A program made the translations under genes and the position numbers. Source: Hordeum vulgare subsp. vulgare (taxonomy: Eukaryota > Streptophyta > Magnoliopsida > Poales > Poaceae). From it: DNA of 64,000 bases. The DNA lies in NCBI RefSeq assembly GCF_904849725.1, contig NC_058518.1, positions 10,002,147-10,066,146 on the forward strand, read 5' to 3'. Below the pieces are notes generated by a model. That model saw only the letters and a program-made list of their open reading frames with translations. It searched no databases and was not told the origin of the DNA. Below, in pieces: positions 1 to 51,650 of this stretch; position 1 is the first letter of the stretch, and every line of letters begins with the position of its first letter.

Positions 1-252
1 TTTTTTGAACTTATTTGAACTCCATAGTTTTTCTGTGTTCAAAATGCACCATTAAAATCCACATCATCAATTTACAACCCTTTCTGACTTCGTTTGTTAT
101 TTTTCATGCATTTACTGATTATTTTGAGCTATAAGACCATGAAATTGAAAATACTTGAAATGAACTCTGAAAAGGTTCCAAGTTGGCATGGTATCATCAT
201 TTCACCCACATAACATGTGCGAGAAAGTTGAGAGGGTTACGACAAAAAATGG

Positions 253-3200
253 ATGCACTTCGTGTACAAAACGGACAATCTCTTTCGAAGTATGAGGGTT
301 TCATACGGAAACTCGTCTGTTACAAAGGGATTTCATTTTTTTGAACTTATTGAACTCCATAGTTTTTCTGTGTTCAAAATGCACAATTCAAAGCCACATC
401 ATCAATTTACAACCCTTTCTGACTTCATTTGTTATTTTTCATGCATTTACTGATTATTTTGATCTATAAGACCATGAAATTAAAAAGCATTTGAAATAAA
501 CTCTGAAAAGGTTCCAAGTTGGTATGGTGTCATCATTTCACCCACATAGCATGTGCGAGAAAGTTGAGAGGGTTACGGCAAAAACTGGATGCACTTCGTG
601 TACAAAACGGACAATCTCTTTGGAAGTATCAGGGTTTCATACGGAAACTCGCTTGTTACAAAGGGATTTCATTTTTTTGAACTTATTTGAACTCCATAGT
701 TTTTCTATGTTCAAAATGCACGATTCAAAGCCACATCATCAGTTTACAACCCGTTCTAACTTCATTTGTTATTTTTCATGCATTTACTGATTATTTTGAG
801 CTATAAGACAATGAAATTGAAAAGAATTTGAAATGAACTATGAAAAGGTTCCAAGTTGGCATGGTATTATCATTTCACCCACATAGCGTGTGCAAGAAAG
901 TTGAGAGGGTTACGGCAAAACTGTATGCACTTCGTGTACAAAAAGGACAATCTCTTTCGAAGTATCATGGTTTCATACGGAAACTCGTCTGTTACAAAGG
1001 GATTTTATTTTTTGAACTTATTTGTACTCCATAGTTTTTTTGTGTTAAATTTGCACCATTCAAAGCCACATCATCAATTTACAACCCTTTCTGACTTCAT
1101 TTGTTATTTTTCATGCATTTACTGATTATTTTGAGCTATAAGACCATGAAATTGAAAAGCATTCGAAATGAAGTCTGAAAAGGTTCCAAGTTAGCATGGT
1201 ATCATCATTTCACCCACATAGCATGTGCGAGAAAGTTGAGAGGGTTACGACAAAAATTGGATGCACTTCGTGTACAAAACGGACAATCTCTTTCGAAGTA
1301 TGAGGGTTTCATACGGAAACTCGTCTATTACAAAGGGATTTCATTTTTTTGAACTTATTTGAACTCCATAGTTTTTCTATGTTCAAAATGCACCATTCAA
1401 AGCCACATCATCAATTTACAACCCTTTCTGACTTTAATTGTTATTTTTCATGCATTTACTGATTATTATGAGCTATAAGACCATGAAATTGAAAACATTT
1501 GAAATGAACTCTAAAATGGTTCCAAGTTGGCATGGTATTATCATTTCACCCACATAGCATGTGCGAGAAAGTTGAGAGGGTTACGGTAAAAACTGGATGC
1601 ACTTCGTGTACAAAACGGACAATCTCTTTCGAAGTATCACGACTTCATACGGAAACTCGTCTGTTAGAATGGGATTTCATTTTTTTGAACTTATTTGATC
1701 TCCATAGTTTTTCTGTGTTCAAAATGCACCATTCAAATCCACATCATCAATTTACAACCCTTTCTGACTTCATTTGTTACTTTTCATGCATTTACTGATT
1801 ATTATGAGCTATAAGACCATGAAATTGAAAACATTTGAAACACTGAAAAGGTTCCAAGTAGGCATGGTATCATCATTTCACCCACATAGCATGTGCGAGA
1901 AAGTTGAGAGGGTTACGGCAAAAACTGGATGCACTTCGTGTACAAAATGGACAATCTCTTTCGAAGTATCAGGGTTTCATACGGAAACTCGTCTGTTACA
2001 AAGGGATTTCATTTTTTGAACTTATTTGATCTCCATAGTTTTTCTGTGTTCAAAATGCACCATTCAAATCCACATCATAAGTTTACAACCCTTTCTAAAT
2101 TCATTTGTTGTTTTTCATGCATTTACTGATTATTATGAGCTATAAGACCATGAAATTGAAAACATTTGAAATGAACACTGAAAAGGTTCCAAGTAGGCAT
2201 GGTATCATCATTTCACCCACATAGCATGTGCGAGAAAGTTGAGAGGGTTACGGCAAAAACTGGATGCACTTCGTGTACAAAACGGACAATCTCTTTCGAA
2301 GTATCAGGGTTTCATACGGAAACTCGTCTGTTACAAAGGGATTTCATTTTTTGAACTTATTTGATCTCCATAGTTTTTCTGTGTTCAAAATGCACCATTC
2401 AAATCCACATCATAAGTTTACAACCCTTTCTAAATTCATTTGTTGTTTTTCATGCATTTACTGATTATTTTGAGCTATAAGACCATGAAATTGAAAAGCA
2501 TTTGAAATGAACTCTGAAAAGGTTCCAAGTTGGCATGGTATCATCATTTCACCCACATAACATGTGCGAGAAAGTTGAGAAGGTTATGGCAAAAACTGGA
2601 TGCACTTCGTGTACAAAACGGACAATCTCTTTCGAAGTATCAGGGTTTCATACGGAAACTCGTCTGTTACAAAGGGATTTCATTTTTTTGAACTTATTTG
2701 AACTCCATAGTTTTTCTGTGTTCAAAATGCACCATTCAAAGCCACATCATCAATTTACAACCATTTCTGACTCCATTTGTTATTTTTCATGCATTTACTG
2801 ATTATGATGAGCTATAAGACCATGAAATTGAAAAGTATTTGAAATGAACTCTGAAAAGGTTCCAAGTTGGCATGGTATCATCATTTCACCCACATAGCAT
2901 GTGCGAGAAAGTTGAGAGGGTTACGGCAAAAACTGGATGCACTTCGTGTACAAAACGGACAATCTCTTTCGAAGTATGAGGGTTTCATACGGAAACTCGT
3001 CTATTACAAAGGGATTTCATTTTTTTGAACTTATTTGAACACCATAGTTTTTCTGTGTTCAAAATGCACAATTCAAAGCGACATCATCAATTTACAACCC
3101 TTTCTAACTTCATTTGTTATTTTTCATGCATTTACTGACTATTTTGAGCTATAAGACCATGAAATTGAAAAGCATTTGAAACGAACTCTGAAAAGGTTCC

Positions 3201-5293
3201 AAGTTGGCATGGTATCATCATTTCACCCACATAGCATGTGCGAGAAAGTTGAGAGGGTTGCGGCAAAAACTGGATGCACTTCATGTACAAAACGGACAAT
3301 CTCTTTCGAAGTATCAGGGTTTCATACGGAAACTCGTCTCTTACAAATGGATTTCGTTTTTTTGAACATATTTGAACTCCATAGTTTTTCTGTGTTCAGA
3401 ATGCACAATTCAAAGCCACATCATCAATTTACAACCCTTTCTGACTTCGTTTGTTATTTTTCATGCATTTACTGATTATTTTGAGCTATAAGACCATGAA
3501 ATTGAAAAGCATTTGAAATGAACTCTGAAAAGGTTTCAAGTTGGCATGGTGTCATCATTTCACCCACATAGCATGTGCGAGAAAGTTGAGAGGGTTACGA
3601 CAAAAACTGGATGCACTTCGTGTACAAAACGGACAATCTCTTTTGAAGTATCAGGGTTTCATACGGAAACTCGTTTGTTACAAAGGGATTTCATTTTTTT
3701 GAACTTATTTGAACTCCATAGTTTTTCTCTGTTCAAAATGCACAATTCAAAGCCACATCATCAGTTTACAACCCTTTCTAACTTCATTAGTTATTTTTCA
3801 TGCATTTACTGATTATTTTGAGCCATAAGACCATGAAATTGAAAAGCATTTGAAATGAACTATGAAAAGGTTCCAAGTTGGCATGGTGTCATCATTTCAC
3901 CCACATAGCATGTGCGAGAAAGTTGAGAGGGTTACGGCAAAAACTGGATGCACTTCGTGTACAAAACGGACAATCTCTTTCGAAGTATCAGGGTTTCATA
4001 CGGAAACTCGTTTGTTATAAAGGGATTTCATTTTTTTGAACTGATTTGAACTCCATAGTTTGTCTGTGTTCAAAATGCACCATTCAAAGCCACATCATCA
4101 GTTTACAACCCTTTCTAACTTCATTTGTTATTTTTCATCCATTTACTGATTATTTTGAGCCATAAGACCATGAAATTGAAAAGCATTTGAAATGAACTAT
4201 GAAAAGGTTTCAAGTTGGCATGGTATCATCATTTCACCCACATATCGTGTGCGAGAAAGTTGAGAGGGTTACGGCAAAAACTGTATGCACTTCGTGTACA
4301 AAACGGACAATCTCTTTCGAAGTATCAGGGTTTCATACGGAAACTCGTCTGTTACAAAGGGATTTCATTTTTTTGAACTTATTTGAACTCCATAGTTTTT
4401 TTGTGGTCAAAATGCACCATTCAAAGCCACATCATGAATTTACAACCCTTTCTGACTTCATTTGTTATTTTTCATGCATTTACTGATTATTTTGAGCTAT
4501 AAGACCATGAAATTGAAAAACATTTGAAACGAACTCTGAAAAGGTTTCAAGCTGGCATGGTATCATCATTTCACCCACATAGCATGTGCGAGAAAGTTGA
4601 GAGGGTTAAGACAAAAACTGGATGCACTTCGTGTACAAAACGGACAATCTCTTTCGAAGTATCACGGTTTCATACGGAAACTCGTGTGTTACGAAGGGAT
4701 TTCATTTTTTTGAACTTATTTGAACTCCATAGTTTTTCTAGGTTCAAAATGCACCATTCAAAGCCACATCATCAATTTGCAACCCTTTGTGACTTCATTT
4801 GTTATTTTTCATGCATTTACTCATTATTATGAGCTATAAGACCATGAAATTGAAAACATTTGAAATGAACTCTGAAAAGGTTCCAAGTTGGCATGGTATC
4901 ATCATTTCACCCACATAACATGTGCGAGAAAGTTGAGAGGGTTACGACAAAAACTGGATGCACTTCGTGTACAAAACGGACAATCTCTTTCGAAGTATGA
5001 GGGTTTCATACGGAAACTCGTCTCTTACGAAGGGATTTCATTTTTTTGAACTTATTTGAACTCCATAGTTTTTCTGTGTTCAAAATGCACCATTAAAATC
5101 CACATCATCAATTTACAACCCTTTCTGACTTAGTTTGTTATTTTTCATGCATTTACTGATTATTTTGAGCTATAAGACCATGAAATTGAAAATACTTGAA
5201 ATGAACTCTGAAAAGGTTCCAAGTTGGCATGGTATCATCATTTCACCCACATAACATGTGCGAGAAAGTTGAGAGGGTTACGACAAAAAATGG
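253..5293 (+). repeat. Higher-order repeat unit 1 (15 monomers, 5,041 bp)
   Basis: The phase is arbitrary and is set at a recognisable variant monomer containing 'gacaaaaaatggatgcac'. The same ordered series of variant monomers returns at 5,294. Two adjacent monomers, around 1,850-2,184 and 2,185-2,519, are nearly identical and share the variant 'cataagtttacaac'. This local duplication gives 15 monomers where units 3 and 4 have 14. Confidence 0.9.
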
Positions 5294-8200
5294 ATGCACT
5301 TCGTGTACAAAACGGACAATCTCTTTCGAAGTATGAGGGTTTCATACGGAAACTCGTCTGTTACAAAGGGATTTCATTTTTTTGAACTTATTGAACTCCA
5401 TAGTTTTTCTGTGTTCAAAATGCACAATTCAAAGCCACATCATCAATTTACAACCCTTTCTGACTTCATTTGTTATTTTTCATGCATTTACTGATTATTT
5501 TGATCTATAAGACCATGAAATTAAAAAGCATTTGAAATAAACTCTGAAAAGGTTCCAAGTTGGTATGGTGTCATCATTTCACCCACATAGCATGTGCGAG
5601 AAAGTTGAGAGGGTTACGGCAAAAACTGGATGCACTTCGTGTACAAAACGGACAATCTCTTTGGAAGTATCAGGGTTTCATACGGAAACTCGCTTGTTAC
5701 AAAGGGATTTCATTTTTTTGAACTTATTTGAACTCCATAGTTTTTCTATGTTCAAAATGCACGATTCAAAGCCACATCATCAGTTTACAACCCTTTCTAA
5801 CTTCATTTGTTATTTTTCATGCATTTACTGATTATTTTGAGCTATAAGACAATGAAATTGAAAAGAATTTGAAATGAACTATGAAAAGGTTCCAAGTTGG
5901 CATGGTATTATCATTTCACCCACATAGCGTGTGCAAGAAAGTTGAGAGGGTTACGGCAAAACTGTATGCACTTCGTGTACAAAAAGGACAATCTCTTTCG
6001 AAGTATCATGGTTTCATACGGAAACTCGTCTGTTACAAAGGGATTTTATTTTTTGAACTTATTTGTACTCCATAGTTTTTTTGTGTTCAAAATGCACCAT
6101 TCAAAGCCACATCATCAATTTACAACCCTTTCTAACTTCATTTGTTATTTTTCATGCATTTACTGATTATTTTGAGCTATAAGACCATGAAATTGAAAAG
6201 CATTCGAAATGAAGTCTGAAAAGGTTCCAAGTTAGCATGGTATCATCATTTCACCCACATAGCATGTGCGAGAAAGTTGAGAGGGTTACGACAAAAATTG
6301 GATGCACTTCGTGTACAAAACGGACAATCTCTTTCGAAGTATGAGGGTTTCATACGGAAACTCGTCTATTACAAAGGGATTTCATTTTTTTGAACTTATT
6401 TGAACTCCATAGTTTTTCTATGTTCAAAATGCACCATTCAAAGCCACATCATCAATTTACAACCCTTTCTGACTTCAATTGTTATTTTTCATGCATTTAC
6501 TGATTATTATGAGCTATAAGACCATGAAATTGAAAACATTTGAAATGAACTCTAAAATGGTTTCAAGTTGGCATGGTATTATCATTTCACCCACATAGCA
6601 TGTGCGAGAAAGTTGAGAGGGTTACGGTAAAAACTGGATGCACTTCGTGTACAAAATGGACAATCTCTTTCGAAGTATCACGATTTCATACGGAAACTCG
6701 TCTGTTAGAATGGGATTTCATTTTTTTGAACTTATTTGATCTCCATAGTTTTTCTGTGTTCAAAATGCACCATTCAAATCCACATCATCAATTTACAACC
6801 CTTTCTGACTTCATTTGTTACTTTTCATGCATTTACTGATTATTATGAGCTATAAGACCATGAAATTGAAAACATTTGAAACACTGAAAAGGTTCCAAGT
6901 AGGCATGGTATCATCATTTCACCCACATAGCATGTGCGAGAAAGTTGAGAGGGTTACGGCAAAAACTGGATGCACTTCATGTACAAAACGGACAATCTCT
7001 TTCGAAGTATCAGGGTTTCATACGGAAACTCGTCTGTTACAAAGGGATTTCATTTTTTGAACTTATTTGATCTCCATAGTTTTTCTGTGTTCAAAATGCA
7101 CCATTCAAATCCACATCATAAGTTTACAACCCTTTCTAAATTCATTTGTTGTTTTTCATGCATTTACTGATTATTATGAGCTATAAGACCATGAAATTGA
7201 AAACATTTGAAATGAACACTGAAAAGGTTCCAAGTAGGCATGGTATCATCATTTCACCCACATAGCATGTGCGAGAAAGTTGAGAGGGTTACGGCAAAAA
7301 CTGGATGCACTTCGTGTACAAAACGGACAATCTCTTTCGAAGTATCAGGGTTTCATACGGAAACTCGTCTGTTACAAAGGGATTTCATTTTTTGAACTTA
7401 TTTGATCTCCATAGTTTTTCTGTGTTCAAAATGCACCATTCAAATCCACATCATAAGTTTACAACCCTTTCTAAATTCATTTGTTGTTTTTCATGCATTT
7501 ACTTATTATTTTGAGCTATAAGACCATGAAATTGAAAAGCATTTGAAATGAACTCTGAAAAGGTTCCAAGTTGGCATGGGATCATCATTTCACCCACATA
7601 ACATGTGCGAGAAAGTTGAGAAGGTTATGGCAAAAACTGGATGCACTTCGTGTACAAAACGGACAATCTCTTTCGAAGTATCAGGGTTTCATACGGAAAC
7701 TCGTCTGTTACAAAGGGATTTCATTTTTTTGAACTTATTTGAACTCCATAGTTTTTCTGTGTTCAAAATGCACCATTCAAAGCCACATCATCAATTTACA
7801 ACCATTTCTGACTCCATTTGTTATTTTTCATAAATTTACTGATTATGATGAGCTATAAGACCATGAAATTGAAAAGTATTTGAAATGAACTCTGAAAAGG
7901 TTCCAAGTTGGCATGGTATCATCATTTCACCCACATAGCATGTGCGAGAAAGTTGAGAGGGTTACGGCAAAAACTGGATGCACTTCGTGTACAAAACGGA
8001 CAATCTCTTTCGAAGTATGAGGGTTTCATACGGAAACTCGTCTATTACAAAGGGATTTCATTTTTTTGAACTTATTTGAACACCATAGTTTTTCTGTGTT
8101 CAAAATGCACAATTCAAAGCGACATCATCAATTTACAACCCTTTCTAACTTCATTTGTTATTTTTCATGCATTTACTGACTATTTTGAGCTATAAGACCA

Positions 8201-10322
8201 TGAAATTGAAAAGCATTTGAAACGAACTCTGAAAAGGTTCCAAGTTGGCATGGTATCATCATTTCACCCACATAGCATGTGCGAGAAAGTTGAGAGGGTT
8301 GCGGCAAAAACTGGATGCACTTCATGTACAAAACGGACAATCTCTTTCGAAGTATCAGGGTTTCATACGGAAACTCGTGTGTTACAAATGGATTTCGTTT
8401 TTTTGAACATATTTGAACTCCATAGTTTTTCTGTGTTCAGAATGCACAATTCAAAGCCACATCATCAATTTACAACCCTTTCTGACTTCGTTTGTTATTT
8501 TTCATGCATTTACTGATTATTTTGAGCTATAAGACCATGAAATTGAAAAGCCTTTGAAATGAACTCTGAAAAGGTTTCAAGTTGGCATGGTGTCATCATT
8601 TCACCCACATAGCATGTGCGAGAAAGTTGAGAGGGTTACGACAAAAACTGGATGCACTTCGTGTACAAAACGGACAATCTCTTTTGAAGTATCAGGGTTT
8701 CATACGGAAACTCGTTTGTGACAAAGGGATTTCATTTTTTTGAACTTATTTGAACTCCATAGTTTTTCTATGTTCAAAATGCACAATTCAAAGCCACATC
8801 ATCAGTTTACAACCCTTTCTAACTTCATTTGTTTATTTTCATGCATTTACTGATTATTTTGAGCCATAAGACCATGAAATTGAAAAGCATTTGAAATGAA
8901 CTATGAAAAGGTTCCAAGTTGGCATGGTGTCATCATTTCACCCACATAGCATGTGCGAGAAAGTTGAGAGGGTTACGGCAAAAACTGGATGTACTTCGTG
9001 TACAAAACGGACAATCTCTTTCGAAGTATCAGGGTTTCATACGGAAACTCGTTTGTTATAAAGGGATTTCATTTTTTTGAACTGATTTGAACTCCATAGT
9101 TTGTTCGTGTTCAAAATGCACCATTCAAAGCCACATCATCAGTTTACAACCCTTTCTAACTTCATTTGTTATTTTTCATCCATTTACTGATTATTTTGAG
9201 CCATAAGACCATGAAATTGAAAAGCATTTGAAATGAACTATGAAAAGGTTTCAAGTTGGCATGGTATCATCATTTCACCCACATATCGTGTGCGAGAAAG
9301 TTGAGAGGGTTACGGCAAAAACTGTATGCACTTCGTGTACAAAACGGACAATCTCTTTCGAAGTATCAGGGTTTCATACGGAAACTCGTCTGTTACAAAG
9401 GGATTTCATTTTTTTGAACTCCATAGTTTTTTTGTGGTCAAAATGCACCATTCAAAGCCACATCATGAATTTACAACCCTTTCTGACTTCATTTGTTATT
9501 TTTCATGCATTTACTGATTATTTTGAGCTATAAGACCATGAAATTGAAAAACATTTGAAACGAACTCTGAAAAGGTTTCAAGTTGGCATGGTATCATCAT
9601 TTCACCCACATAGCATGTGCGAGAAAGTTGAGAGGGTTAAGACAAAAACTGGATGCACTTCGTGTACAAAACGGACAATCTCTTTCGAAGTATCACGGTT
9701 TCATACGGAAACTCGTGTGTTACGAAGGGATTTCATTTTTTGAACTTATTTGAACTCCATAGTTTTTCTAGGTTCAAAATGCACCATTCAAAGCCACATC
9801 ATCAATTTGCAACCCTTTGTGACTTCATTTGTTATTTTTCATGCATTTACTCATTATTATGAGCTATAAGACCATGAAATTGAAAACATTTGAAATGAAC
9901 TCTGAAAAGGTTCCAAGTTGGCATGGTATCATCATTTCACCCACATAACATGTGCGAGAAAGTTGAGAGGATTACGACAAAAACTGGATGCACTTCGTGT
10001 ACAAAACGGACAATCTCTTTCGAAGTATGAGGGTTTCATACGGAAACTCGTCTCTTACGAAGGGATTTCATTTTTTGAACTTATTTGATCTCCATAGTTT
10101 TTCTGTGTTCAAAATGCACCATTAAAATCCACATCATCAATTTACAACCCTTTCTGACTTCGTTTGTTATTTTTCATGCATTTACTGATTATTTTGAGCT
10201 ATAAGACCATGAAATTGAAAATACTTGAAATGAACTCTGAAAAGGTTCCAAGTTGGCATGGTATCATCATTTCACCCACATAACATGTGCGAGAAAGTTG
10301 AGAGGGTTACGACAAAAAATGG
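5294..10322 (+). repeat. Higher-order repeat unit 2 (15 monomers, 5,029 bp)
   Basis: Monomer order is the same as in unit 1, with scattered single-base differences. It keeps the duplicated 'cataagtttacaac' monomer pair (around 6,890-7,560). Most of the 12-bp shortening relative to unit 1 comes from a ~10-bp loss near 9,416, where 'ttttttgaactccat' lacks the internal 'ttatttgaac'. Confidence 0.9.
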
Positions 10323-13300
10323 ATGCACTTCGTGTACAAAACGGACAATCTCTTTCGAAGTATGAGGGTTTCATACGGAAACTCGTCTGTTACAAAGGGA
10401 TTTCATTTTTTTGAACTTATTGAACTCCATAGTTTTTCTGTGTTCAAAATGCACAATTCAAAGCCACATCATCAATTTACAACCCTTTCTGACTTCATTT
10501 GTTATTTTTCATGCATTTACTGATTATTTTGATCTATAAGACCATGAAATTAAAAAGCATTTGAAATAAACTCTGAAAAGGTTCCAAGTTGGTATGGTGT
10601 CATCATTTCACCCACATAGCATGTGCGAGAAAGTTGAGAGGGTTACGGCCAAAACTGGATGCACTTCGTGTACAAAACGGACAATCTCTTTGGAAGTATG
10701 AGGGTTTCATACGGAAACTCGTGTGTTACAAAGGGATTTCATTTTTTGAACTTATTTGAAAACTCCATAGTTTTTCTGTGTTCAAAATGCACCATTCAAA
10801 TCCACATCATCAATTTACAACCCTTTCTGACTTCATTTGTTATTTTTCATGCATTTACTGATTATTTTGAGCTATAAGACAATGAAATTGAAAAGAATTT
10901 GAAATGAACTATGAAAAGGTTCCAAGTTGGCATGGTATTATCATTTCACCCACATAGCGTGTGCAAGAAAGTTGAGAGGGTTACGGCAAAACTGTATGCA
11001 CTTCGTGTACAAAACGGACAATCTCTTTCGAAGTATCATGGTTTCATACGGAAACTCGTCTGTTACAAAGGGATTTTATTTTTTGAACTTATTTGTACTC
11101 CATAGTTTTTTTGTGTTCACAATGCACCATTCAAAGCCACATCATCAATTTACAACCCTTTCTGACTTCATTTGTTATTTTTCATGCATTTACTGATTAT
11201 TTTGAGCTATAAGACCATGAAATTGAAAAGCATTCGAAATGAACTCTGAAAAGGTTCCAAGTTAGCATGGTATCATCATTTCACCCACATAGCATGTGCG
11301 AGAAAGTTGAGAGGGTTACGACAAAAATTGGATGCACTTCGTGTACAAAACGGACAATCTCTTTCGAAGTATGAGGGTTTCATACGGAAACTCGTCTATT
11401 ACAAAGGTATTTCATTTTTTTGAACTTATTTGAACTCCATAGTTTTCCTATGTTCAAAATGCACCATTCAAAGCCACATCATCAATTTACAACCCTTTCT
11501 GACTTCAATTGTTATTTTTCATGCATTTACTGATTATTATGAGCTATAAGACCATGAAATTGAAAACATTTGAAATGAACTCTAAAATGGTTCCAAGTTG
11601 GCATGGTATTATCATTTCACCCACATAGCATGTGCGAGAAAGTTGAGAGGGTTACGGCAAAAACTGGATGCACTTCGTGTACAAAACGGACAATCTCTTT
11701 CGAAGTATCACGGTTTCATACGGAAACTCGTATGTTAGAATGGGATTTCATTTTTTTGAACTTATTTGATCTCCATAGTTTTTCTGTGTTCAAAATGCAC
11801 CATTCAAATCCACATCATCAATTTACAACCCTTTCTGACTTCATTTGTTACTTTTCATGCATTTACTGATTATTATGAGCTATAAGACCATGAAATTGAA
11901 AACATTTGAAACACTGAAAAGGTTCCAAGTAGGCATGGTATCATCATTTCACCCACATAGCATGTGCGAGAAAGTTGAGAGGGTTACGGCAAAAACTGGA
12001 TGCACTTCGTGTACAAAACGGACAATCTCTTTCGAAGTATCAGGGTTTCATACGGAAACTCGTCTGTTACAAAGGGATTTCATTTTTTGAACTTTTTTGA
12101 TCTCCATAGTTTTTCTGTGTTCAAAATGCACCATTCAAATCCACATCATAAGTTTACAACCCTTTCTAACTTCATTTGTTGTTTTTCATGCATTTACTGA
12201 TTATTTTGAGCTATAAGACCATGAAATTGAAAAGCATTTGAAATGAACTCTGAAAAGGTTCCAAGTTGGCATGGTATCATCATTTCACCCACATAACATG
12301 TGCGAGAAAGTTGAGAAGGTTATCGCAAAAACTGAATGCACTTCGTGTACAAAACGGACAATCTCTTTCGAAGTATCAGGGTTTCATACGGAAACTCGTG
12401 TGTTACAAAGGGATTTCATTTTTTTGAACTTATTTGAACTCCATAGTTTTTCTGTGTTCAAAATGCACCATTCAAAGCCACATCATCAATTTACAACCAT
12501 TTCTGACTCCATTTGTTATTTTTCATGCATTTACTGATTATGATGAGCTATAAGACCATGAAATTGAAAAGTATTTGAAATGAACTCTGAAAAGGTTCCA
12601 AGTTGGCATGGTATCATCATTTCACCCACATAGCATGTGCGAGAAAGTTGAGAGGGTTACGGCAAAAACTGGATGCACTTCGTGTACAAAACGGACAATC
12701 TCTTTCGAAGTATGAGGGTTTCATACGGAAACTCGTCTATTACAAAGGGATTTCATTTTTTTGAACTTATTTGAACACCATAGTTTTTCTGTGTTCAAAA
12801 TGCACAATTCAAAGCGACATCATCAATTTACAACCCTTTCTAACTTCATTTGTTATTTTTCATGCATTTACTGACTATTTTGAGCTATAAGACCATGAAA
12901 TTGAAAAGCATTTGAAACGAACTCTGAAAAGGTTCCAAGTTGGCATGGTATCATCATTTCACCCACATAGCATGTGCGAGAAAGTTGAGAGGGTTGCGGC
13001 AAAAACTGGATGCACTTCATGTACAAAACGGACAATCTCTTTCGAAGTATCAGGGTTTCATACGGAAACTCGTCTGTTACAAATGGATTTCGTTTTTTTG
13101 AACTTATTTGAACTCCATAGTTTTTCTGTGTTCAGAATGCACAATTCAAAGCCACATCATCAATTTACAACCCTTTCTGACTTCGTTTGTTATTTTTCAT
13201 GCATTTACTGATTATTTTGAGCTATAAGACCATGAAATTGAAAAGCATTTGAAATGAACTCTGAAAAGGTTTCAAGTTGGCATGGTGTCATCATTTCACC

Positions 13301-15028
13301 CACATAGCATGTGCGAGAAAGTTGAGAGGGTTACGACAAAAACTGGATGCACTTCGTGTACAAAACGGACAATCTCTTTTGAAGTATCAGGGTTTCATAC
13401 GGAAACTCGTTTGTTACAAAGGGATTTCATTTTTTTGAACTTATTTGAACTCCATAGTTTTTCTGTGTTCAAAATGCACAATTCAAAGCCACATCATCAG
13501 TTTACAACCCTTTCTAACTTCATTTGTTTATTTTCATGCATTTACTGATTATTTTGAGCCATAAGACCATGAAATTGAAAAGCATTTGAAATGAACTATG
13601 AAAAGGTTCCAAGTTGGCATGGTGTCATCATTTCACCCACATAGCATGTGCGAGAAAGTTGAGAGGGTTATGGCAAAAACTGGATGCACTTCGTGTACAA
13701 AACGGACAATCTCTTTCGAAGTATCAGGGTTTCATACGGAAACTCGTTTGTTATAAAGGGATTTCATTTTTTTGAACTGATTTGAACTCCATAGTTTGTC
13801 CGTGTTCAAAATGCACCATTCAAAGCCACATCATCAGTTTACAACCCTTTCTAACTTCATTTGTTATTTTTCATCCATTTACAGATTATTTTGAGCCATA
13901 AGACCATGAAATTGAAAAGCATTTGAAATGAACTATGAAAAGGATTCAAGTTGGCATGGTATGATCATTTCACCCACATATCGTGTGCGAGAAAGTTGAG
14001 AGGGTTACGGCAAAAACTGTATGCACTTCGTGTACAAAACGGACAATCTCTTTCGAAGTATCACGGTTTCATACGGAAACTCGTCTGTTACAAAGGGATT
14101 TCATTTTTTTGAACTTATTTGAACTCCATAGTTTTTTTGTGGTCAAAATGCACCATTCAAAGCCACATCATGAATTTACAACCCTTTCTGACTTCATTTG
14201 TTATTTTTCATGCATTTACTAATTATTTTGAGCTATAAGACCATGAAATTGAAAAACATTTGAAACGAACTCTGAAAAGGTTTCAAGTTGGCATGGTATC
14301 ATCATTTCACCCACATAGCATGTGCGAGAAAGTTGAGAGGGTTAAGACAAAAACTGGATGCACTTCGTGTACAAAACGGACAATCTCTTTTGAAGTATCA
14401 CGGTTTCATACGGAAACTCGTGTGTTACGAAGGGATTTCATTTTTTGAACTTATTTGAACTCCATAGTTTTTCTAGGTTCAAAATGCACCATTCAAAGCC
14501 ACATCATCAATTTGCAACCATTTGTGACTTCATTTGTTATTTTTCATGCATTTACTCATTATTATGAGCTATAAGACCATGAAATTGAAAACATTTGAAA
14601 TGAACTCTGAAAAGGTTCCAAGTTGGCATGGTATCATCATTTCACCCACATAACATGTGCGAGAAAGTTGAGAGGGTTACGACAAAAACTGGATGCACTT
14701 CGTGTACAAAACGGACAATCTCTTTCGAAGTATGAGGGTTTCATACGGAAACTCGTCTCTTACGAAGGGATTTCATTTTTTTGAACTTATTTGATCTCCA
14801 TAGTTTTTCTGTGTTCAAAATGCACCATTAAAATCCACATCATCAATTTACAACCCTTTCTGACTTCATTTGTTATTTTTCATGCATTTACTGATTATTT
14901 TGAGCTATAAGACCATGAAATTGAAAATACTTGAAATGAACTCTGAAAAGGTTCCAAGTTGGCATGGTATCATCATTTCACCCACATAACATGTGCGAGA
15001 AAGTTGAGAGGGTTACGACAAAAAATGG
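10323..15028 (+). repeat. Higher-order repeat unit 3 (14 monomers, 4,706 bp)
   Basis: Same monomer order as units 1 and 2, but only one 'cataagtttacaac' monomer (around 11,925-12,260). The unit is therefore shorter by one monomer length (about 335 bp). Several diagnostic bases are shared with unit 4 and not with units 1 and 2, for example 'ctaacttcatttgttg' in place of 'ctaaattcatttgttg'. Confidence 0.9.
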
Positions 15029-18000
15029 ATGCACTTCGTGTACAAAACAGACAATCTCTTTCGAAGTATGAGGGTTTCATATGGAAACTCTTATGTTACA
15101 AAGGGATTTCATTTTTTTGAACTTATTGAACTCCATAGTTTTTCTGTGTTCAAAATGCACAATTCAAAGCCACATCATCAATTTACAACCCTTTCTGACT
15201 TCATTTGTTATTTTTCATGCATTTACTGATTAGTTTGATCTATAAGACCATGAAATTAAAAAGCATTTGAAATAAACTCTGAAAAGGTTCCAAGTTGGTA
15301 TGGTGTCATCATTTCACCCACATAGCATGTGCGAGAAAGTTGAGAGGGTTACGGCAAAAACTGGATGCACTTCGTGTACAAAACGGACAATCTCTTTGGA
15401 AGTATCAGGGTTTCATACGGAAACTCGCTTGTTACAAAGGGATTTCATTTTTTTGAACTTATTTGAACTCCATAGTTTTTCTATGTTCAAAATGCACGAT
15501 TCAAAGCCACATCATTAGTTTACAACCCTTTCTAACTTCATTTGTTATTTTTCATGGATTTACTAATTATTTTGAGCTATAAGACAATGAAATTGAAAAG
15601 AATTTGAAATGAACTATGAAAAGGTTCCAAGTTGGCATGGTATTATCATTTCACCCACATAGCGTGTGCAAGAAAGTTGAGAGGGTTACGGCAAAACTGT
15701 ATGCACTTCGTGTACAAAACGGACAATCTCTTTCGAAGTATCATGGTTTCATACGGAAACTCGTCTGTTACAAAGGGATTTTATTTTTTGAACTTATTTG
15801 TACTCCATAGTTTTTTTGTGTTCAAAATGCACCATTCAAAGCCACATCATCAATTTACAACCCTTTCTGACTTCATTTGTTATTTTTCATGCATTTACTG
15901 ATTATTTTGAGCTATAAGACCATGAAATTGAAAAGCATTCGAAATGAACTCTGAAAAGGTTCCAAGTTAGCATGGTATCATCATTTCACCCACATAGCAT
16001 GTGCGAGAAAGTTGAGAGGGTTACGACAAAAATTGGATGCACTTCGTGTACAAAACGGACAATCTCTTTCGAAGTATGAGGGTTTCATACGGAAACTCGT
16101 CTATTACAAAGGGATTTCATTTTTTTGAACTTATTTGAACTCCATAGTTTTTCTATGTTCAAAATGCACCATTCAAAGCCACATCATCAATTTACAACCC
16201 TTTCTGACTTCAATTGTTATTTTTCATGCATTTACTGATTATTATGAGCTATAAGACCATGAAATTGAAAACATTTGAAATGAACTCTAAAATGGTTCCA
16301 AGTTGGCATGGTATTATCATTTCACCCACATAGCATGTGCGAGAAAGTTGAGAGGGTTACGGCAAAAACTGGATGCACTTCGTGTACAAAACGGACAATC
16401 TCTTTCGAAGTATCACGGTTTCATACGGAAACTCGTCTGTTAGAATGGGATTTCATTTTTTTGAACTTATTTGATCTCCATAGTTTTTCTGTGTTCAAAA
16501 TGCACCATTCAAATCCACATCATCAATTTACAACCCTTTCTGACTTCATTTGTTACTTTTCATGCATTTACTGATTATTTTGACCTATAAGACCATGAAA
16601 TTGAAAACATTTGAAACTCTGAAAAGGTTCCAAGTTGGCATGGTATCATCATTTCACCCACATAGCATGTGCGAGAAAGTTGAGAGGGTTACGGCAAAAA
16701 CTGTATGCACTTCGTGTACAAAACGGACAATCTCTTTCGAAGTATCAGGGTTTCATACGGAAACTCGTCTGTTACAAAGGGATTTCATTTTTTGAACTTA
16801 TTTGATCTCCATAGTTTTTCTGTGTTCAAAATGCACCATTCAAATCCACATCATAAGTTTACAACCCTTTCTAACTTCATTTGTTGTTTTTCATGCATTT
16901 ACTGATTATTTTGAGCTATAAGACCATGAAATTGAAAAGCATTTGAAATGAACTCTGAAAAGGTTCCAAGTTGGCATGGTATCATCATTTCACCCACATA
17001 ACATGTGCGAGAAAGTTGAGAAAGTTATGGCAAAAACTGAATGCACTTCGTGTACAAAACGGACAATCTCTTTCGAAGTATCAGGGTTTCATACGGAAAC
17101 TCGTGTGTTACAAAGGGATTTCATTTTTTTGAACTTATTTGAACTCCATAGTTTTTCTGTGTTCAAAATGCACCATTCAAAGCCACATCATCAATTTACA
17201 ACCATTTCTGACTCCATTTGTTATGTTTCATGCATTTACTGATTATGATGAGCTATAAGACCATGAAATTGAAAAGTATTTGAAATGAACTGTGAAAAGG
17301 TTCCAAGTTGGCATGGTATCATCATTTCACCCACATAGCGTGTGCGAGAAAGTTGAGAGGGTTACGGGAAAAACTGGATGCACTTCGTGTACAAAACGGA
17401 CAATCTCTTTCGAAGTATGAGGGTTTCATACGGAAACTCGTCTATTACAAAGGGATTTCATTTTTTTGAACTTATTTGAACACCATAGTTTTTCTGTGTT
17501 CAAGATGCACAATTCAAAGCGACATCATCAATTTACAACCCTTTCTAACTTCATTTGTTATTTTTCATGCATTTACTGACTATTTTGAGCTATAAGACCA
17601 TGAAATTGAAAAGCATTTGAAACGAACTATGAAAAGGTTCCAAGTTGGCATGGTATCATCATTTCACCCACATAGCATGTGCGAGAAAGTTGAGAGGGTT
17701 GCGGCAAAAACTGGATGCACTTCATGTACAAAACGGACAATCTCTTTCGAAGTATCAGGGTTTCATACGGAAACTCGTCTGTTACAAAGGGATTTTATTT
17801 TTTGAACTTATTTGAACTCCATAGTTTTTCTGTGTTCAGAATGCACAATTCAAAGCCACATCATCAATTTACAACCCTTTCTGACTTCGTTTGTTATTTT
17901 TCATGCATTTACTGATTATTTTGAGCTATAAGACCATGAAATTGAAAATCATTTGAAATGAACTCTGAAAAGGTTTCAAGTTGGCATGGTGTCATCATTT

Positions 18001-19732
18001 CACCCACATAGCATGTGCGAGAAAGTTGAGAGGGTTACGACAAAAACTGGATGCACTTCGTGTACAAAACGGACAATCTCTTTTGAAGTATCAGGGTTTC
18101 ATACGGAAACTCGTTTGTTACAAAGGGATTTCATTTTTTTGAACTTATTTGAACTCCATAGTTTTTCTGTGTTCAAAATGCACAATTCAAAGCCACATCA
18201 TTAGTTTACAACCCTTTCTAACTTCATTTGTTTATTTTCATGCATTTACTGATTATTTTGAGCCATAAGACCATGAAATTGAAAAGCATTTGAAATGAAC
18301 TATGAAAAGGTTCCAAGTTGGCATGGTGTCATCATTTCACCCACATAGCATGTGCGAGAAAGTTGAGAGGGTTACGGCAAAAACTGGATGCACTTCGTGT
18401 ACAAAACGGACAATCTCTTTCGAAGTATCAGGGTTTCATACGGAAACTCGTTTGTTATAAAGGGATTTCATTTTTTTGAACTGATTTGAACTCCATAGTT
18501 TGTCCGTGTTCAAAATGCACCATTCAAAGCCACATCATCAGTTTACAACCGTTTCTAACTTCATTTGTTATTTTTCATCCATTTACTGATTATTTTGAGC
18601 CATAAGACCATGAAATTGAAAAGCATTTGAAATGAACTATGAAAAGGATTCAAGTTGGCATGGTATCATCATTTCACCCACATATCGTGTGCGAGAAAGT
18701 TGAGAGGGTTACGGCAAAAACTGTATGCACTTCGTGTACAAAACGGACAATCTCTTTCGAAGTATCAGGGTTTCATACGGAAACTCGTCTGTTACAAAGG
18801 GATTTCATTTTTTTGAACTTATTTGAACTCCATAGTTTTTTTGTGGTCAAAATGCACCATTCAAAGCCACATCATGAATTTACAACCCTTTCTGACTTCA
18901 TTTGTTATTTTTCATGCATTTACTGATTATTTTGAGCTATAAGACCATGAAATTGAAAAACATTTGAAACGAACTCTGAAAAGGTTTCAAGTTGGCATGG
19001 TATCATCATTTCACCCACATAGCATGTGCGAGAAAGTTGAGAGGGTTAAGACAAAAACTGGATGCACTTCATGTACAAAACGGACAATCTCTTTCGAAGT
19101 ATCACGGTTTCATACGGAAACTCGTGTGTTACGAAGGGATTTCATTTTTTGAACTTATTTGAACTCCATAGTTTTTCTAGGTTCAAAATGCACCATTCAA
19201 AGCCACATCATCAATTTGCAACCATTTGTGACTTCATTTGTTATTTTTCATGCATTTACTCATTATTATGAGCTATAAGACCATGAAATTGAAAACATTT
19301 GAAATGAACTCTGAAAAGGTTCCAAGTTGGCATGGTATCATCATTTCACCCACATAACATGTGCGAGAAAGTTGAGAGGGTTACGACAAAAACTGGATGC
19401 ACTTCGTGTACAAAACGGACAATCTCTTTCGAAGTATGAGGGTTTCATACGGAAACTCGTCTCTTACGAAGGGATTTCATTTTTTTGAACTTATTTGATC
19501 TCCATAGTTTTTCTGTGTTCAAAATGCACCATTAAAATCCACATCATCAATTTACAACCCTTTCTGACTTCGTTTGTTATTTTTCATGCATTTACTGATT
19601 ATTTTGAGCTATAAGACCATGAAATTGAAAATACTTGAAATGAACTCTGAAAAGGTTCCAAGTTGGCATGGTATCATCATTTCACCCACATAACATGTGC
19701 GAGAAAGTTGAGAGGGTTACGACAAAAAATGG
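15029..19732 (+). repeat. Higher-order repeat unit 4 (14 monomers, 4,704 bp)
   Basis: A 14-monomer unit within 2 bp of unit 3 in length. It shares the single 'cataagtttacaac' monomer and other diagnostic variants with unit 3. Differences from unit 3 are scattered substitutions. Confidence 0.9.
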
Positions 19733-21930
19733 ATGCACTTCGTGTACAAAACAGACAATCTCTTTCGAAGTATGAGGGTTTCATACGGAAACTCGTCTGT
19801 TACAAAGGGATTTCATTTTTTTGAACTTATTGAACTCCATAGTTTTTCTGTGTTCAAAATGCACAATTCAAAGCCACATCATCAATTTACAACCCTTTCT
19901 GACTTCATTTGTTATTTTTCATGCATTTACTGATTAGTTTGATCTATAAGACCATGAAATTAAAAAGCATTTGAAATAAACTCTGAAAAGGTTCCAAGTT
20001 GGTATGGTGTCATCATTTCACCCACATATGCTATGTGCGAGAAAGTTGAGAGGGTTACGGCAAAAACTGGATGCACTTCGTGTACAAAACGGACAATCTC
20101 TTTGGAAGTATCAGGGTTTCATACGGAAACTCGCTTGTTACAAAGGGATTTCATTTTTTTGAACTTATTTGAACTCCATAGTTTTTCTATGTTCAAAATG
20201 CACGATTCAAAGCCACATCATCAGTTTACAACCCTTTCTAACTTCATTTGTTATTTTTCATGCATTTACTGATTATTTTGAGCTATAAGACATTGAAATT
20301 GAAAAGAATTTGAAATGAACTATGAAAAGGTTCCAAGTTGGCATGGTATTATCATTTCACCCACATAGCGTGTGCAAGAAAGTTGAGAGGGTTACGGCAA
20401 AACTGTATGCACTTCGTGTACAAAACGGACAATCTCTTTCGAAGTATCATGGTTTCATACGGAAACTCGTCTGTTACAAAGGGATTTTATTTTTTGAACT
20501 TATTTGTACTCCATAGTTTTTTTGTGTTCAAAATGCACCATTCAAAGCCACATCATCAATTTACAACCCTTTCTGACTTCATTTGTTATTTTTCATGCAT
20601 TTACTGATTATTTTGAGCTATAAGACCATGAAATTGAAAAGCATTCGAAATGAACTCTGAAAAGGTTCCAAGTTAGCATGGTATCATCATTTCACCCACA
20701 TAGCATGTGCGAGAAAGTTGAGAGGGTTACGACAAAAATTGGATGCACTTCGTGTACAAAACGGACAATCTCTTTCGAAGTATGAGGGTTTCATACGGAA
20801 ACTCGTCTATTACAAAGGGATTTCATTTTTTTGAACTTATTTGAACTCCATAGTTTTTCTATGTTCAAAATGCACCATTCAAAGCCACATCATCAATTTA
20901 CAACCCTTTCTGACTTCAATTGTTATTTTTCATGCATTTACTGATTATTATGAGCTATAAGACCATGAAATTGAAAACATTTGAAATGAACTCTAAAATG
21001 GTTCCAAGTTGGCATGGTATTATCTTTTCACCCACATAGCATGTGCGAGAAAGTTGAGAGGGTTACGGCAAAAACTGGATGCACTTCGTGTACAAAACGG
21101 ACAATCTCTTTCGAAGTATCACGGTTTCATACGGAAACTCGTCTGTTAGAATGGGATTTCATTTTTTTGAACTTATTTGATCTCCATAGTTTTTCTGTGT
21201 TCAAAATGCACCATTCAAATCCACATCATCAATTTACAACCCTTTCTGACTTCATTTGTTACTTTTCATGCATTTACTGATTATTATGAGCTATAAGACC
21301 ATGAAATTGAAAACATTTGAAACTCTGAAAAGGTTCCAAGTTGGCATGGTATCATCATTTCACCCACATAGCATGTGCGAGAAAGTTGAGAGGGTTACGG
21401 CAAAAACTGGATGCACTTCGTGTACAAAACGGACAATCTCTTTCGAAGTATCAGGGTTTCATACGGAAACTCGTCTGTTACAAAGGGATTTCATTTTTTG
21501 AACTTATTTGATCTCCATAGTTTTTCTGTGTTCAAAATGCACCATTCAAATCCACATCATAAGTTTACAACCCTTTATAACTTCATTTGTTGTTTTTCAT
21601 GCATTTACTGATTATTTTGAGCTATAAGACCATGAAAGTGAAAAGCATTTGAAATGAACTCTGAAAAGGTTCCAAGTTGGCATGGTATCATCATTTCACC
21701 CACATAGCATGTGCGAGAAAGTTGAGAGGGTTACGGCAAAAACTGGATGCACTTCGTGTACAAAACGGACAATCTCTTTCGAAGTATCAGGGTTTCATAC
21801 GGAAACTTGTTTGTTACAAAGGGATTTCATTTTTTTTGAACTTATTTGAACTCCATAGTTTTTTTGTGTTCAAAATGCACCATTCAAAGCCACATCATCA
21901 ATTTACAACCCTTTTCGACTCGGGCATTAG
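19733..21930 (+). repeat. Higher-order repeat unit 5, truncated (about 6.5 monomers)
   Basis: The series restarts at 19,733, follows units 3 and 4 through the single 'cataagtttacaac' monomer (21,411-21,611), then enters one last, slightly diverged monomer that breaks off at about 21,922. The terminal monomer has 'catgaaagtgaaaagc' and a longer T-run, as expected for an edge repeat that escapes homogenisation. Confidence 0.85.
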
Positions 21931-22159
21931 TCCCGGTTCATAATATACTCCAAAGTGCGTCGGTCAGCGTACATCCATTGGCGGTTCATCTCTATTATGA
22001 AATTAAGTATATATAAAAAAACCATTGTAGAACAAAATGAATAGATAAATGACCAAATTAATACAAGTTCATCATCACATTAAAACGAAAGCACAATAGT
22101 GATCAAATGTTATTACTGAAAAATAAATACATAAAGGTCTCTCATAAAACAACATACAA

Positions 22160-22653
22160 CTATGTAAAACATTTAAATGCAACAACAAACGCGATCAAAA
22201 TCGCAAGTAAGGTAACAATTGACCCAACGGCATTATGATACCAAGCCTCTTTATCAATGGCATATTTTTTAATATTCCTAATCTTCAAGCGCATTTCATC
22301 CATCTTCAAGCGCATTGCATCCATCTTCAACTGCATCGCATTGATCTTCATCTTGCGATCGTCAATGACCTCGGCAACATGCAACTCCATTTCCATATTC
22401 TTATCCTCAATCATTTTCAATTTTTCCTTCAAGTATTTGTTTTCTTTTTCAACCAAAGTTAACTTCTCGAGAAGAATTTCTAGGTGGGTTGGAATTTCCG
22501 GTTCACATACCTCCTAGATTAAAAATATATGTCACGTTGGTCATCATAATTGTCATAAACAATAAATGAACCAAATAGTTATGAAAAGATAATATATACC
22601 ACATCTGAATCATAGACAGGACGAGGGCCGACGGGGGCGGATACCAAAACCAT
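22160..22653 (-). CDS. Two-exon gene for a 135-aa coiled-coil protein with a C-terminal membrane segment (CACTA-borne)
   Basis: Exon 1 runs 22,653-22,600 (ATG at 22,653; 18 codons ending Asp-Val before a GTATAT donor). Exon 2 runs 22,513-22,160 after a 'tttaatctag' acceptor. The joined frame is open and gives 135 aa. Residues ~25-95 are a charged helix rich in Lys, Glu and Met, with near-repeats of 'MQLKMDAMRLKMDEMRLK' that predict a coiled coil. Residues ~110-132 (GSIVTLLAILIAFVVAF) form one hydrophobic segment followed by a 4-residue tail, the layout of a tail-anchored protein. The 5' intron and leader match those of the TNP2 gene of element C, so this gene uses the transposon promoter. I know similar predicted proteins as frequent 'uncharacterized' entries in Triticeae annotations and know of no function. 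The 3' flank to 21,931 shows no other gene. Confidence 0.7.
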
Positions 22654-22939
22654 CGCACTATATAATAACAAGGAATAATAAAAGTAAGAAAATTAGGCAA
22701 GTATCTATCTGAAGTCAGAATTTTTTTCTTTCAGAAAGAAGATAAGAACAAGAGGCTCACCACGGTGGTGCCGGCGACGAGATCGGCGCGGGCGATCGAC
22801 GACGGTGAAGACGGGGCGGGGACGGGGCATGACAGACCGCTAAATCTAGACAAGTATCGTTGAAAATGGAGCTCGGAGGTCGAGTTTCGAGAGGAGAAAG
22901 CTTAACTAGTGTGGCTCGGGCATTTCATCGAACACCTCA

Positions 22940-23318
22940 TGTGCATAGGAGGTGAACTAGAGCACCCAAATGCCCTCCCCTCGCCGGCTCGACAAAAACA
23001 GAACACTGTGGAGTGCTCTGCCGCGGCGGTGGGTATATATGTAGGCAAGTTATTTTTCCCAGTTCGTGGCATGAACCGGGACTAAAGCCACCCCTTCTGT
23101 CCCGGTTCATGCCACGAACCGGGACGAATGGTTGTGGACCAGCAGCGAGGGCCATTGGTCCCGGTTCGTGGCTCGAACCGGGACAAATGGTTCCACACGA
23201 ACCGGGACCAATGCCCACGAGGTCCCGGCCGGCCCCCTGGGCTCACGAACCGGGTTCTTGAAGAACCGGGACTAATGGGCTGGCCACGGCCGAACTATAG
23301 CCCTGTTTTCTACTAGTG
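22940..23318 (-). repeat. 5' TIR and subterminal repeats of element A
   Basis: From the terminus at 23,318 inward there are at least five copies of the motif family 'cccggttc(g/a)' in both orientations, several paired as short palindromes such as 'gaaccgggactaa'. In En/Spm elements such subterminal repeats bind the element's own proteins. The block ends at the TATA box. Confidence 0.85.
23034..23040 (-). promoter_or_regulatory. TATA box of the element A transcript
   Basis: The minus strand reads TATATA directly inside the subterminal repeats. A GC-rich leader follows, then a GTGAGC donor at 22,760-22,755 and an intron reaching the 'atatag' acceptor just before the ATG at 22,653. The same arrangement is at 53,518-53,892 in element C. 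Confidence 0.6.
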
Positions 23319-24169: not shown

Positions 24170-24270
24170 AGGGCGGTCACCGAACCCGTACAAATGGCAA
24201 CCCTTGGGGGCGGTCACCGAACCCGTACACGTGGCAACCCTTGGGGGCGGTTACCAGTACCCGTACAAAT
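24170..24270. repeat. Short tandem repeat, ~39-bp unit, 2.5 copies
   Basis: The unit 'ggcggtcaccgaacccgtac' plus 'aaatggcaacccttggg' occurs twice and partly a third time, with small changes. Confidence 0.85.
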
Positions 24271-27344: not shown

Positions 27345-27565
27345 GCGTGGATGCCTTTTGGTCCCGGTTGGTGTCACCAACCGGAACTAAAGGCCCCCCC
27401 TGCCTGGCCTGGCCGCAGCGGCCACGTGGAGGCTCATCTGTCCCGGTTGGTGTAAGAACCGGGACTAAAGGCCGAGGGCATTAGTAACGACCTTTTAGTC
27501 CCGATTCCAAAACCGGGACAGAAGGCCCTTACGAACCGGGACAAAAGGCCATTTTTCTACTAGTG
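27345..27565 (+). repeat. 3' subterminal repeats and TIR of element D
   Basis: Inverted motifs 'gtcccggttggtg', 'caccaaccggaac', 'gaaccgggactaaagg' and 'ttttagtcccgattcc' precede the terminal ...TACTAGTG. The block is nearly identical to 61,545-61,765 of element C. Confidence 0.85.
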
Positions 27566-51424: not shown

Positions 51425-51478
51425 CGTATGTCCTACTATTTAAATTCCTACTGTTTAATAAACATTTCTAAATTTGTA

Positions 51479-51648: not shown

Positions 51649-51650
51649 TA

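What the first reader, a model, noticed from the sequence alone, without database searches (positions are those of the whole stretch)
1..22500. A higher-order satellite array housed inside a CACTA transposon
More than 21.9 kb of ~336-bp monomers are arranged in ~5-kb higher-order repeats, an organisation usually tied to centromeric or subtelomeric satellites. Here the array ends directly at the 3' flank of a gene whose leader, promoter and TIR are those of a CACTA element. Short diverged copies of the same monomer sit at the same place, and in the same orientation relative to the transposase, in elements B and C. This suggests that an internal transposon segment was amplified into a satellite, and that such elements could seed satellites elsewhere.
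Basis: partly seen in the sequence, partly recalled or inferred. Interest (0 to 1): 0.75.

Follow-up and report, generated by a model that had tools for sequence, protein, structure and literature searches.

The report
Afa satellite array beside CACTA transposon
This stretch of barley DNA is a long, young array of a well-known grass satellite repeat that ends at the remains of a jumping gene, and two neighbouring jumping genes of the same kind carry a few copies of that repeat, which fits the published idea that the satellite came from such elements.

Summary
Positions 1-21914 are one unbroken array of 337-bp monomers (65 complete) in a real higher-order repeat of 15 monomers (5.04 kb; 14 monomers, 4.70 kb, in later copies). 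HOR copies are about 99% identical, different monomer classes about 94%. It is not a new satellite: probe and primer matches show Afa/pAs1 (HvuSat01-338 in barley), and an exact 135-aa protein match says the window is barley. The right edge joins a deletion-derivative CACTA: a 16-codon transposase remnant, a spliced 135-aa gene, a leader, and a TIR at 23318. Elements B and C carry 0.6 and 2.9 Afa copies just 3' of their transposase genes, in the same relative orientation; B is inserted inside C's copies. 'Housed inside' is unproven: the left end is outside the window and the genome search did not complete. CACTA homology of this satellite is already in print. Not found in print in my searches: HOR structure of Afa and this junction with a truncated transposase. 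Most likely a CACTA spacer was amplified. Capture of an older satellite remains a real rival: a fourth element (D) holds a 25-bp Afa filler at a deletion junction.

The parts
1..21914 (+). Afa/pAs1 satellite array, 65 complete 337-bp monomers plus ends; runs off the left edge of the window
   Evidence: TRF; segmentation; pAs1 probe and Afa primer matches (sequences printed in papers)
49..5089 (+). HOR copy 1, 15 monomers A-O
5090..10118 (+). HOR copy 2, 15 monomers (M variant 10 bp shorter)
10119..14824 (+). HOR copy 3, 14 monomers (lacks G)
14825..19528 (+). HOR copy 4, 14 monomers (lacks G)
19529..21914 (+). HOR copy 5, partial, cut at the junction
21925..21941 (.). subterminal-repeat motif (CCCGGTTC type) between array and transposase remnant
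   Evidence: short BLAST matches to subterminal repeats elsewhere in the window
21942..21989 (-). remnant of the transposase start in element A, 16 codons, then truncated
   Evidence: 13 of 16 residues identical to element B's start; DNA alignment 60 of 81 ungapped columns with upstream bases; 22-bp BLAST match E 6.5e-5
22160..22513 (-). exon 2 of the 135-aa coiled-coil/membrane-like protein gene of element A
   Evidence: exons 1+2 translate to a protein identical to P0121, barley UniProt
22600..22653 (-). exon 1 of the same gene (18 codons)
22680..23318 (-). CACTA leader, subterminal repeats and TIR of element A (TIR ends at 23318, CACTAGTAGAAAACAGGGC on the minus strand)
   Evidence: BLAST and pairwise alignment to element B; TIR pattern
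23319..27565 (+). element D, 3' part of a B-like CACTA next to or around A, with its own insertion at about 23.75-26.81 kb
   Evidence: matches to B at 59.6-61.77 kb; best stretch 569 of 592 ungapped columns, 12 gap columns
26943..26967 (+). 25 bp identical to the Afa consensus in element D, at a junction where D lacks about 1.06 kb that B has (60119-61182)
   Evidence: 24-bp match; flanking matches; alignment
53262..61765 (+). element B, CACTA, interrupted tnp2 transposase from 53893 to about 57231, inserted in element C's Afa copies
   Evidence: TIRs; Pfam Transposase_21, DUF4218, Transpos_assoc; stops; insertion register
57276..57471 (-). Afa relative in element B (about 0.6 monomer, with about 150 bp missing inside), 45 bp 3' of the transposase stop
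   Evidence: two adjoining BLAST pieces; alignment
47933..64000 (-). element C, CACTA on the minus strand; 3' TIR at 47933, 5' end beyond the window; interrupted by B
   Evidence: sequence; TIR position; homology to B
62385..64000 (-). C transposase, 3' part
   Evidence: 76.9% BLAST match to B; DUF4216 1.2e-16; stop codon in the frame printed, position read
61766..62260 (+). Afa relatives of element C, right part
52773..53261 (+). Afa relatives of element C, left part; same register as the right part once B is left out

Best explanation
The array is a locally amplified block of the Afa/pAs1 satellite in barley, joined at its right end to a deletion-derivative (non-autonomous) CACTA. The CACTA lineage carries the Afa monomer as part of the spacer between its transposase gene and its second gene (shown in B and C). 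In element A the transposase was lost after 16 codons and the spacer monomer expanded: first into a series of monomers that diverged to about 94%, then as a 15-monomer (5.04 kb) unit copied several times, with one monomer lost or gained. The expansion step is inferred to be unequal recombination or reinsertion of circles copied by rolling-circle replication. Once inside or beside a mobile element, such arrays can seed the satellite elsewhere (inferred).
For: Identity: the 59-nt pAs1 probe matches 1 site exactly and 45 sites with up to 3 substitutions, all in the array; the Afa primer AS-A matches 23 sites exactly and 66 with up to 2 substitutions, all in the array; AS-B matches 55 sites in the array and 4 in B and C with up to 3 (sequences printed in PMC9017042 and PMC2543021). 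Organism: 135 of 135 aa identical to a Hordeum vulgare protein. CACTA anatomy: TIRs, leader, transposase remnant. Position: Afa copies 3' of the transposase in both B and C, orientation opposite to the genes in A, B and C. Timing: within-array identity 95.3-95.4% exceeds A-B (89-92%) and A-C (87-90%). Two-stage growth: same-class 98.8% versus different-class 93.7%. Mechanism support from others: wheat Afa forms extrachromosomal circles in monomer steps (PMC2543021, passages).
Against: The left end of A is not in the window, so the array may run on without a CACTA end. In A a subterminal-repeat motif sits between the transposase remnant and the array, so the layout is not simply B or C with more monomers. 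Element D holds 25 bp identical to the Afa consensus as filler at a deletion junction within its gene-2 region, not in the spacer, so Afa sequence does get copied into CACTA elements. B-C monomer identity (82-88%) is above that of the transposase DNA (79.8%) and of the gene-2 promoter stretch (71.7%), which hints at exchange with the genome's Afa pool or at constraint. In the short-region, midpoint-rooted tree the smallest group holding all 65 array monomers also holds B (66 leaves), so A's array is not cleanly separated. Only B and C were compared in full.
Confidence: 0.55

Rival explanations
1. Capture: Afa is an older independent satellite, and CACTA elements picked up pieces of it, by break or gap repair or by inserting next to or into arrays.
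For: A 25-bp Afa filler at a deletion junction in element D, absent from the matching place in B although D and B are 94-96% identical nearby. B itself is inserted in Afa repeats. B-C monomers are more alike than the other B-C stretches compared. In Chenopodium quinoa an array inside CACTA elements was read as capture by its authors (PMC8978399, passages).
Against: B and C carry Afa at matching places and in the same orientation, 45 and 125 bp 3' of the transposase stop, although their transposase DNA is only 79.8% identical. Independent capture at the same place twice is less simple.
Confidence: 0.29
2. Edge accident: a long ordinary Afa array happens to end where a CACTA fragment was inserted or rearranged; the array was never inside the element.
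For: The left end is unseen; the array is cut inside a monomer with the HOR phase running up to the junction; a subterminal motif of unclear origin lies at the junction.
Against: The same monomer is found inside two neighbouring related elements, and the flank of A is the element's own transposase start, not random DNA.
Confidence: 0.13
3. The HOR is an assembly artefact (a 5-kb unit repeated by misassembly).
For: Near-identical 5-kb copies are hard to assemble (general knowledge; no call tests it).
Against: The copies differ from each other by 0.6-1.1%, by presence or absence of a monomer and by a monomer 10 bp shorter, which a simply repeated assembly path would not produce.
Confidence: 0.03

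Closest known systems
Afa family / pAs1 satellite (HvuSat01-338 in barley)
   Same: Monomer length 337-338 bp, 65% A+T, pAs1 probe and Afa primers match; HvuSat01-338 is reported as the most abundant satellite of H. vulgare (0.60% of the genome) and as Afa-homologous
   Different: A 15-monomer HOR is shown here; I found no report of HOR in Afa. The HvuSat01-338 sequence itself was not available to compare.
EnSpm-N1_AT and other CACTA/EnSpm entries that cover these satellites
   Same: RepeatMasker covers 100% of wheat TaeSat04-337 (2.7% divergence; that this 337-bp satellite is Afa is my inference) and 95-100% of barley HvuSat01-338 and HvuSat02-444 (PMC10827815, PMC11447152)
   Different: Those are consensus matches; here a junction with a truncated element is read base by base. 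Repbase itself was not available to me.
Afa copy inside CACTA 'Conan', wheat 3B
   Same: A single Afa-type unit within a CACTA element (PMC3017796, passages)
   Different: One match of 233 bp, no array
Chenopodium CACTA Jozin and satellite CficCl-61-40; C. quinoa CACTA with a 32.5-copy array
   Same: Satellite generated from, or carried in the 3' region of, a CACTA (PMC7320549, outline and abstract; PMC8978399, passages)
   Different: Unrelated monomers (about 40 and 171 bp); in Jozin the monomer is part of the transposase gene, here it lies 3' of it

Membership tests
Afa/pAs1 satellite family | Tandem monomer of about 337-340 bp | tested here: met
   Period 337, 65 monomers
Afa/pAs1 satellite family | Matches to the Afa primers AS-A/AS-B and the pAs1 probe | tested here: met
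   AS-A: 23 exact, 66 with up to 2 substitutions; AS-B: 0 exact, 7 with 1, 55 with up to 3, in the array; pAs1 59-mer: 1 exact, 45 with up to 3
Afa/pAs1 satellite family | Subtelomeric/interstitial FISH bands | not testable with these tools
   Reported in PMC11447152 for HvuSat01-338; chromosome position of the window unknown
CACTA (En/Spm) transposon, element A | CACTA-type TIR at both ends | tested here: inconclusive
   Right TIR present at 23318; left end outside the window
CACTA (En/Spm) transposon, element A | 3-bp target site duplication | not testable with these tools
   Only one flank is in the window
CACTA (En/Spm) transposon, element A | tnp2-type transposase | tested here: not met
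   Only the first 16 codons are present on this side of the array; A would be non-autonomous
CACTA (En/Spm) transposon, element B | TIRs, subterminal repeats, tnp2 transposase, 3-bp TSD | tested here: met
   TIRs at 53262 and 61765; Transposase_21 7e-75; flanks ACC and ACA, one mismatch; ORF interrupted
Centromere-type higher-order repeat | Multi-monomer unit with higher identity between units than within | tested here: met
   0.988 versus 0.937; 0 of 1000 shuffles. Centromere function was not tested.

The most novel reading that the evidence does not exclude
The most abundant barley satellite began as the spacer between the two genes of a CACTA family, and non-autonomous members such as element A still turn that spacer into HOR arrays of tens of kilobases and carry them to new places, so a cut-and-paste transposon is a working source of satellite blocks in the Triticeae.
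Probability: 0.28. Interest if true: 0.6.

Novelty: new member of a known kind. Interest (0 to 1): 0.35.

Why it matters
Afa/pAs1 is a standard chromosome marker of wheat and barley, and the link to CACTA that I found in print rests on consensus matches and one single unit in an element. A junction read base by base, with diverged copies at the same place in two related elements, gives a concrete route from transposon spacer to satellite and makes it testable: whether the array has a second TIR, and whether sister elements carry the same HOR.

Tried and rejected
Looked for the monomer in viral contigs and in prokaryote genome contigs with an exact 31-base pattern: 0 matches in each, as expected for a plant repeat. 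Rfam: 0 matches at gathering scores. Pfam on the 117-aa exon-2 part of the 135-aa protein: 0 families. The idea that the gene beside the array is the transposase was dropped: it is a separate spliced 135-aa gene, with a 16-codon transposase start between it and the array. The idea that C's left and right Afa copies belong to two elements was dropped: they join in register with 3 extra bases when B is left out. Chance as the source of the HOR was rejected; assembly artefact is rated unlikely. A search for CACTA with B3-domain genes in barley gave 5 papers holding all terms, none about this by title and start of abstract. A much-cited paper on CACTA in Triticeae (PMC166951) is not held; that CACTA elements usually contain tandem arrays I saw only in PMC5738225, which cites it (passages).

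Absence claims and their reach. 'No report of HOR in Afa' rests on search 52 (58 papers, 20 listed; listing only, except PMC2543021, whose passages speak of HOR for Vicia repeats, and PMC11447152, PMC10827815 and PMC10747672 opened elsewhere) and on 'higher-order' having 0 occurrences in PMC10827815 and PMC11447152. 'No report of an Afa array joined to a truncated CACTA' rests on search 15 (9 papers, passages of 5 opened), 21 (13, 5 opened), 22 (28, 20 listed, 8 opened), 28 (4, none opened) and 53 (5, 2 opened). Thirteen papers were opened in all, none read whole; I read sections 12 and 15 of PMC10827815, the outline and abstract of PMC7320549, and passages of the rest. Of these, PMC2756281, PMC4440537, PMC10747672 and PMC5688495 gave nothing used here. 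Subscription papers were not searchable and supplements were not open to me.

Full report
What is there. Positions 1-21914 form one tandem array, period 337, 65.2 copies, 0% indels by TRF. I cut it into 65 complete monomers: 31 of 337 bp, 13 of 335, 12 of 336, 5 of 331 and 4 of other lengths. Mean pairwise identity is 0.940 and mean identity to the consensus 0.965. The array runs off the left edge of the window.

Higher-order structure. Mean identity between monomers peaks at lags of 14 and 15 and their multiples. Clustering gives the class order A-O twice, then the same order without G twice, then a partial fifth copy. The four complete copies are 5041, 5029, 4706 and 4704 bp, 98.9-99.4% identical over ungapped columns (6 pairs). 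Same-class pairs average 0.988 (113 pairs), different-class pairs 0.937 (1967 pairs). In 1000 shuffles of monomer order none reached the observed peak. G is closest to its neighbour H (0.973), so G may be a gained duplicate rather than a lost unit. The last complete monomer before the junction is the most divergent of its class (best match 0.97).

Which satellite. The 59-nt pAs1 FISH probe matches one site exactly and 45 with up to 3 substitutions; the Afa primer AS-A matches 23 sites exactly and 66 with up to 2; AS-B fits less well (0 exact, 7 with 1, 55 with up to 3, plus 4 sites in B and C). I had typed these from memory; PMC9017042 Table 3 and the methods of PMC2543021 print the same letters (passages). 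The array is therefore Afa/pAs1. The species is barley: the spliced 135-aa protein of element A is identical to a Hordeum vulgare UniProt entry, and the 120 hits listed (of 723) are named Hordeum vulgare. In barley the 337-338-bp Afa family is called HvuSat01-338, 0.6031% of the genome (PMC11447152, passages).

The CACTA side. Element A ends at 23318 with the TIR CACTAGTAGAAAACAGGGC read on the minus strand. Inward lie subterminal repeats and a leader 90.6% identical to element B's (519 of 573 ungapped columns, 94 gap columns; 77.8% over 667 columns with gaps counted), then the two-exon 135-aa gene (22653-22600, 22513-22160), then 16 codons of a transposase start (21989-21942; 13 of 16 residues identical to B's), a subterminal-type motif (21925-21941), and the array. 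The transposase body is absent on this side. Whether A has a second TIR to the left cannot be seen here.

Elements B and C. B (53262-61765) has both TIRs and a tnp2-type transposase (Transposase_21 7e-75, DUF4218, Transpos_assoc) whose frame is interrupted by stops and shifts. It carries about 0.6 of an Afa monomer, with about 150 bp missing inside, on the opposite strand, starting 45 bp after the transposase stop. C lies on the minus strand from a TIR at 47933 to beyond 64000, with DUF4216 in its transposase and a weak, sub-threshold Transposase_24 match in its second gene (E 0.0036, 17.9 bits against a cut-off of 28.7). C's Afa copies lie at 52773-53261 and 61766-62260; on the two sides of B they continue in register as 2.9 monomers, with 3 extra bases at the join that fit a target duplication (ACC and ACA, one mismatch). 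So B inserted into C's Afa mini-array. In C the Afa copies begin 125 bp after the transposase stop, with 29-bp repeats between (distance read from the sequence).

Element D. The region 23319-27565 matches B's 3' part. Between its matches to B at 59980-60118 and 61183-61774, D lacks about 1.06 kb and has instead a few bases that include 25 identical to the Afa consensus (26943-26967). This is best read as filler copied from an Afa repeat during break repair (inference). It shows that Afa can enter a CACTA from outside the spacer.

Descent or capture. In a shared region of about 150 bp, array monomers average 95.3-95.4% to each other; B is 89-92% and C 87-90% to them (the range for B reflects whether bases at its internal deletion are counted). 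The A-B leader is 90.6%. These agree with A, B and C inheriting the monomer and A amplifying it afterwards. Against a simple story: B-C monomers (82-88%) are more alike than the B-C transposase DNA (79.8%) and than the gene-2 promoter stretch at about 58.3-59.0 kb (71.7%, 82 gap columns), so exchange or constraint is possible; and D's filler shows capture at small scale. In the short-region tree C's units group together (0.999), but the smallest group with all array monomers also holds B. The elements are too few to settle direction.

What is already known. Wheat: the 337-bp satellite TaeSat04-337 (Afa by my inference; the passages I saw do not say so) is covered 100% by EnSpm-N1_AT at 2.7% divergence, and the authors conclude an origin from transposons (PMC10827815, sections 12 and 15). 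Barley: HvuSat01-338 and HvuSat02-444 are 95-100% related to CACTA (PMC11447152, passages). An Afa unit lies in CACTA Conan on wheat 3B (PMC3017796, passages). CACTA elements are said usually to contain tandem arrays (PMC5738225, passages). Outside grasses, CACTA-derived and CACTA-carried satellites are known in Chenopodium (PMC7320549, outline and abstract; PMC8978399, passages). Rye satellites are described with distinct higher-order organisation (PMC4857426, passages). So the general claim is not new; the Afa HOR and this junction are what I did not find in print, within the searches named in Tried and rejected.

Mechanism. Shown: HOR units of about 5 kb in several copies that differ by one monomer; array joined to a truncated CACTA; Afa in the transposase 3' spacer of two relatives. 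Inferred: growth by unequal recombination or by reinsertion of circles. Afa circles in monomer steps have been seen in wheat (PMC2543021, passages). Not shown: containment, mobility of the array, direction of descent.

Limits. The genome-wide search did not complete, so all DNA evidence comes from this one window, beside protein databases and papers.

Noticed in passing
22160-22653: The 135-aa protein of element A (heptad-like middle and a hydrophobic C-terminal stretch, by eye) belongs to a large barley family: 723 proteins at E<=0.001, the 120 listed named barley. No Pfam family (exon 2 only). A cargo gene of CACTA elements with no known role.
   Followed up: partly
60591-61091: Element B's second gene encodes a B3 DNA-binding domain (2.6e-14); 232 related proteins at E<=0.001, every named one among the 120 listed from barley. 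A transcription-factor-type domain multiplied as transposon cargo; one paper search with these terms found nothing on it (listing only).
   Followed up: partly
53262-61765: CACTA element inserted inside the Afa copies of another CACTA element, with a near-perfect 3-bp duplication: Afa repeats serve as insertion sites too.
   Followed up: yes
26943-26967: 25 bp of Afa consensus as filler at a deletion junction in element D.
   Followed up: yes
23319-27565: 3' part of a B-like CACTA directly next to A's TIR, itself holding a 3-kb insertion with 21-bp GCGGTACTACCGC-type repeats at about 24.85-25.26 kb. A may have inserted into it.
   Followed up: no
40290-40487: Right end of another element with a TIR of CACTACAAGAAATATGGTC type; family not worked out.
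   Followed up: no
29283-31226: Protein kinase gene pieces (Pkinase 1.8e-13 at 30005-30406) with a 129-bp tandem duplication at 30382-30624.
   Followed up: no
47071-47206: Pure (AT)25 followed by (TG)43.5 microsatellite, a likely polymorphic marker.
   Followed up: no
1-21914: CpG observed/expected is 0.71 in the array against 0.85 in element B and 0.89 in a 20-kb control stretch, which fits past methylation of the array.
   Followed up: no
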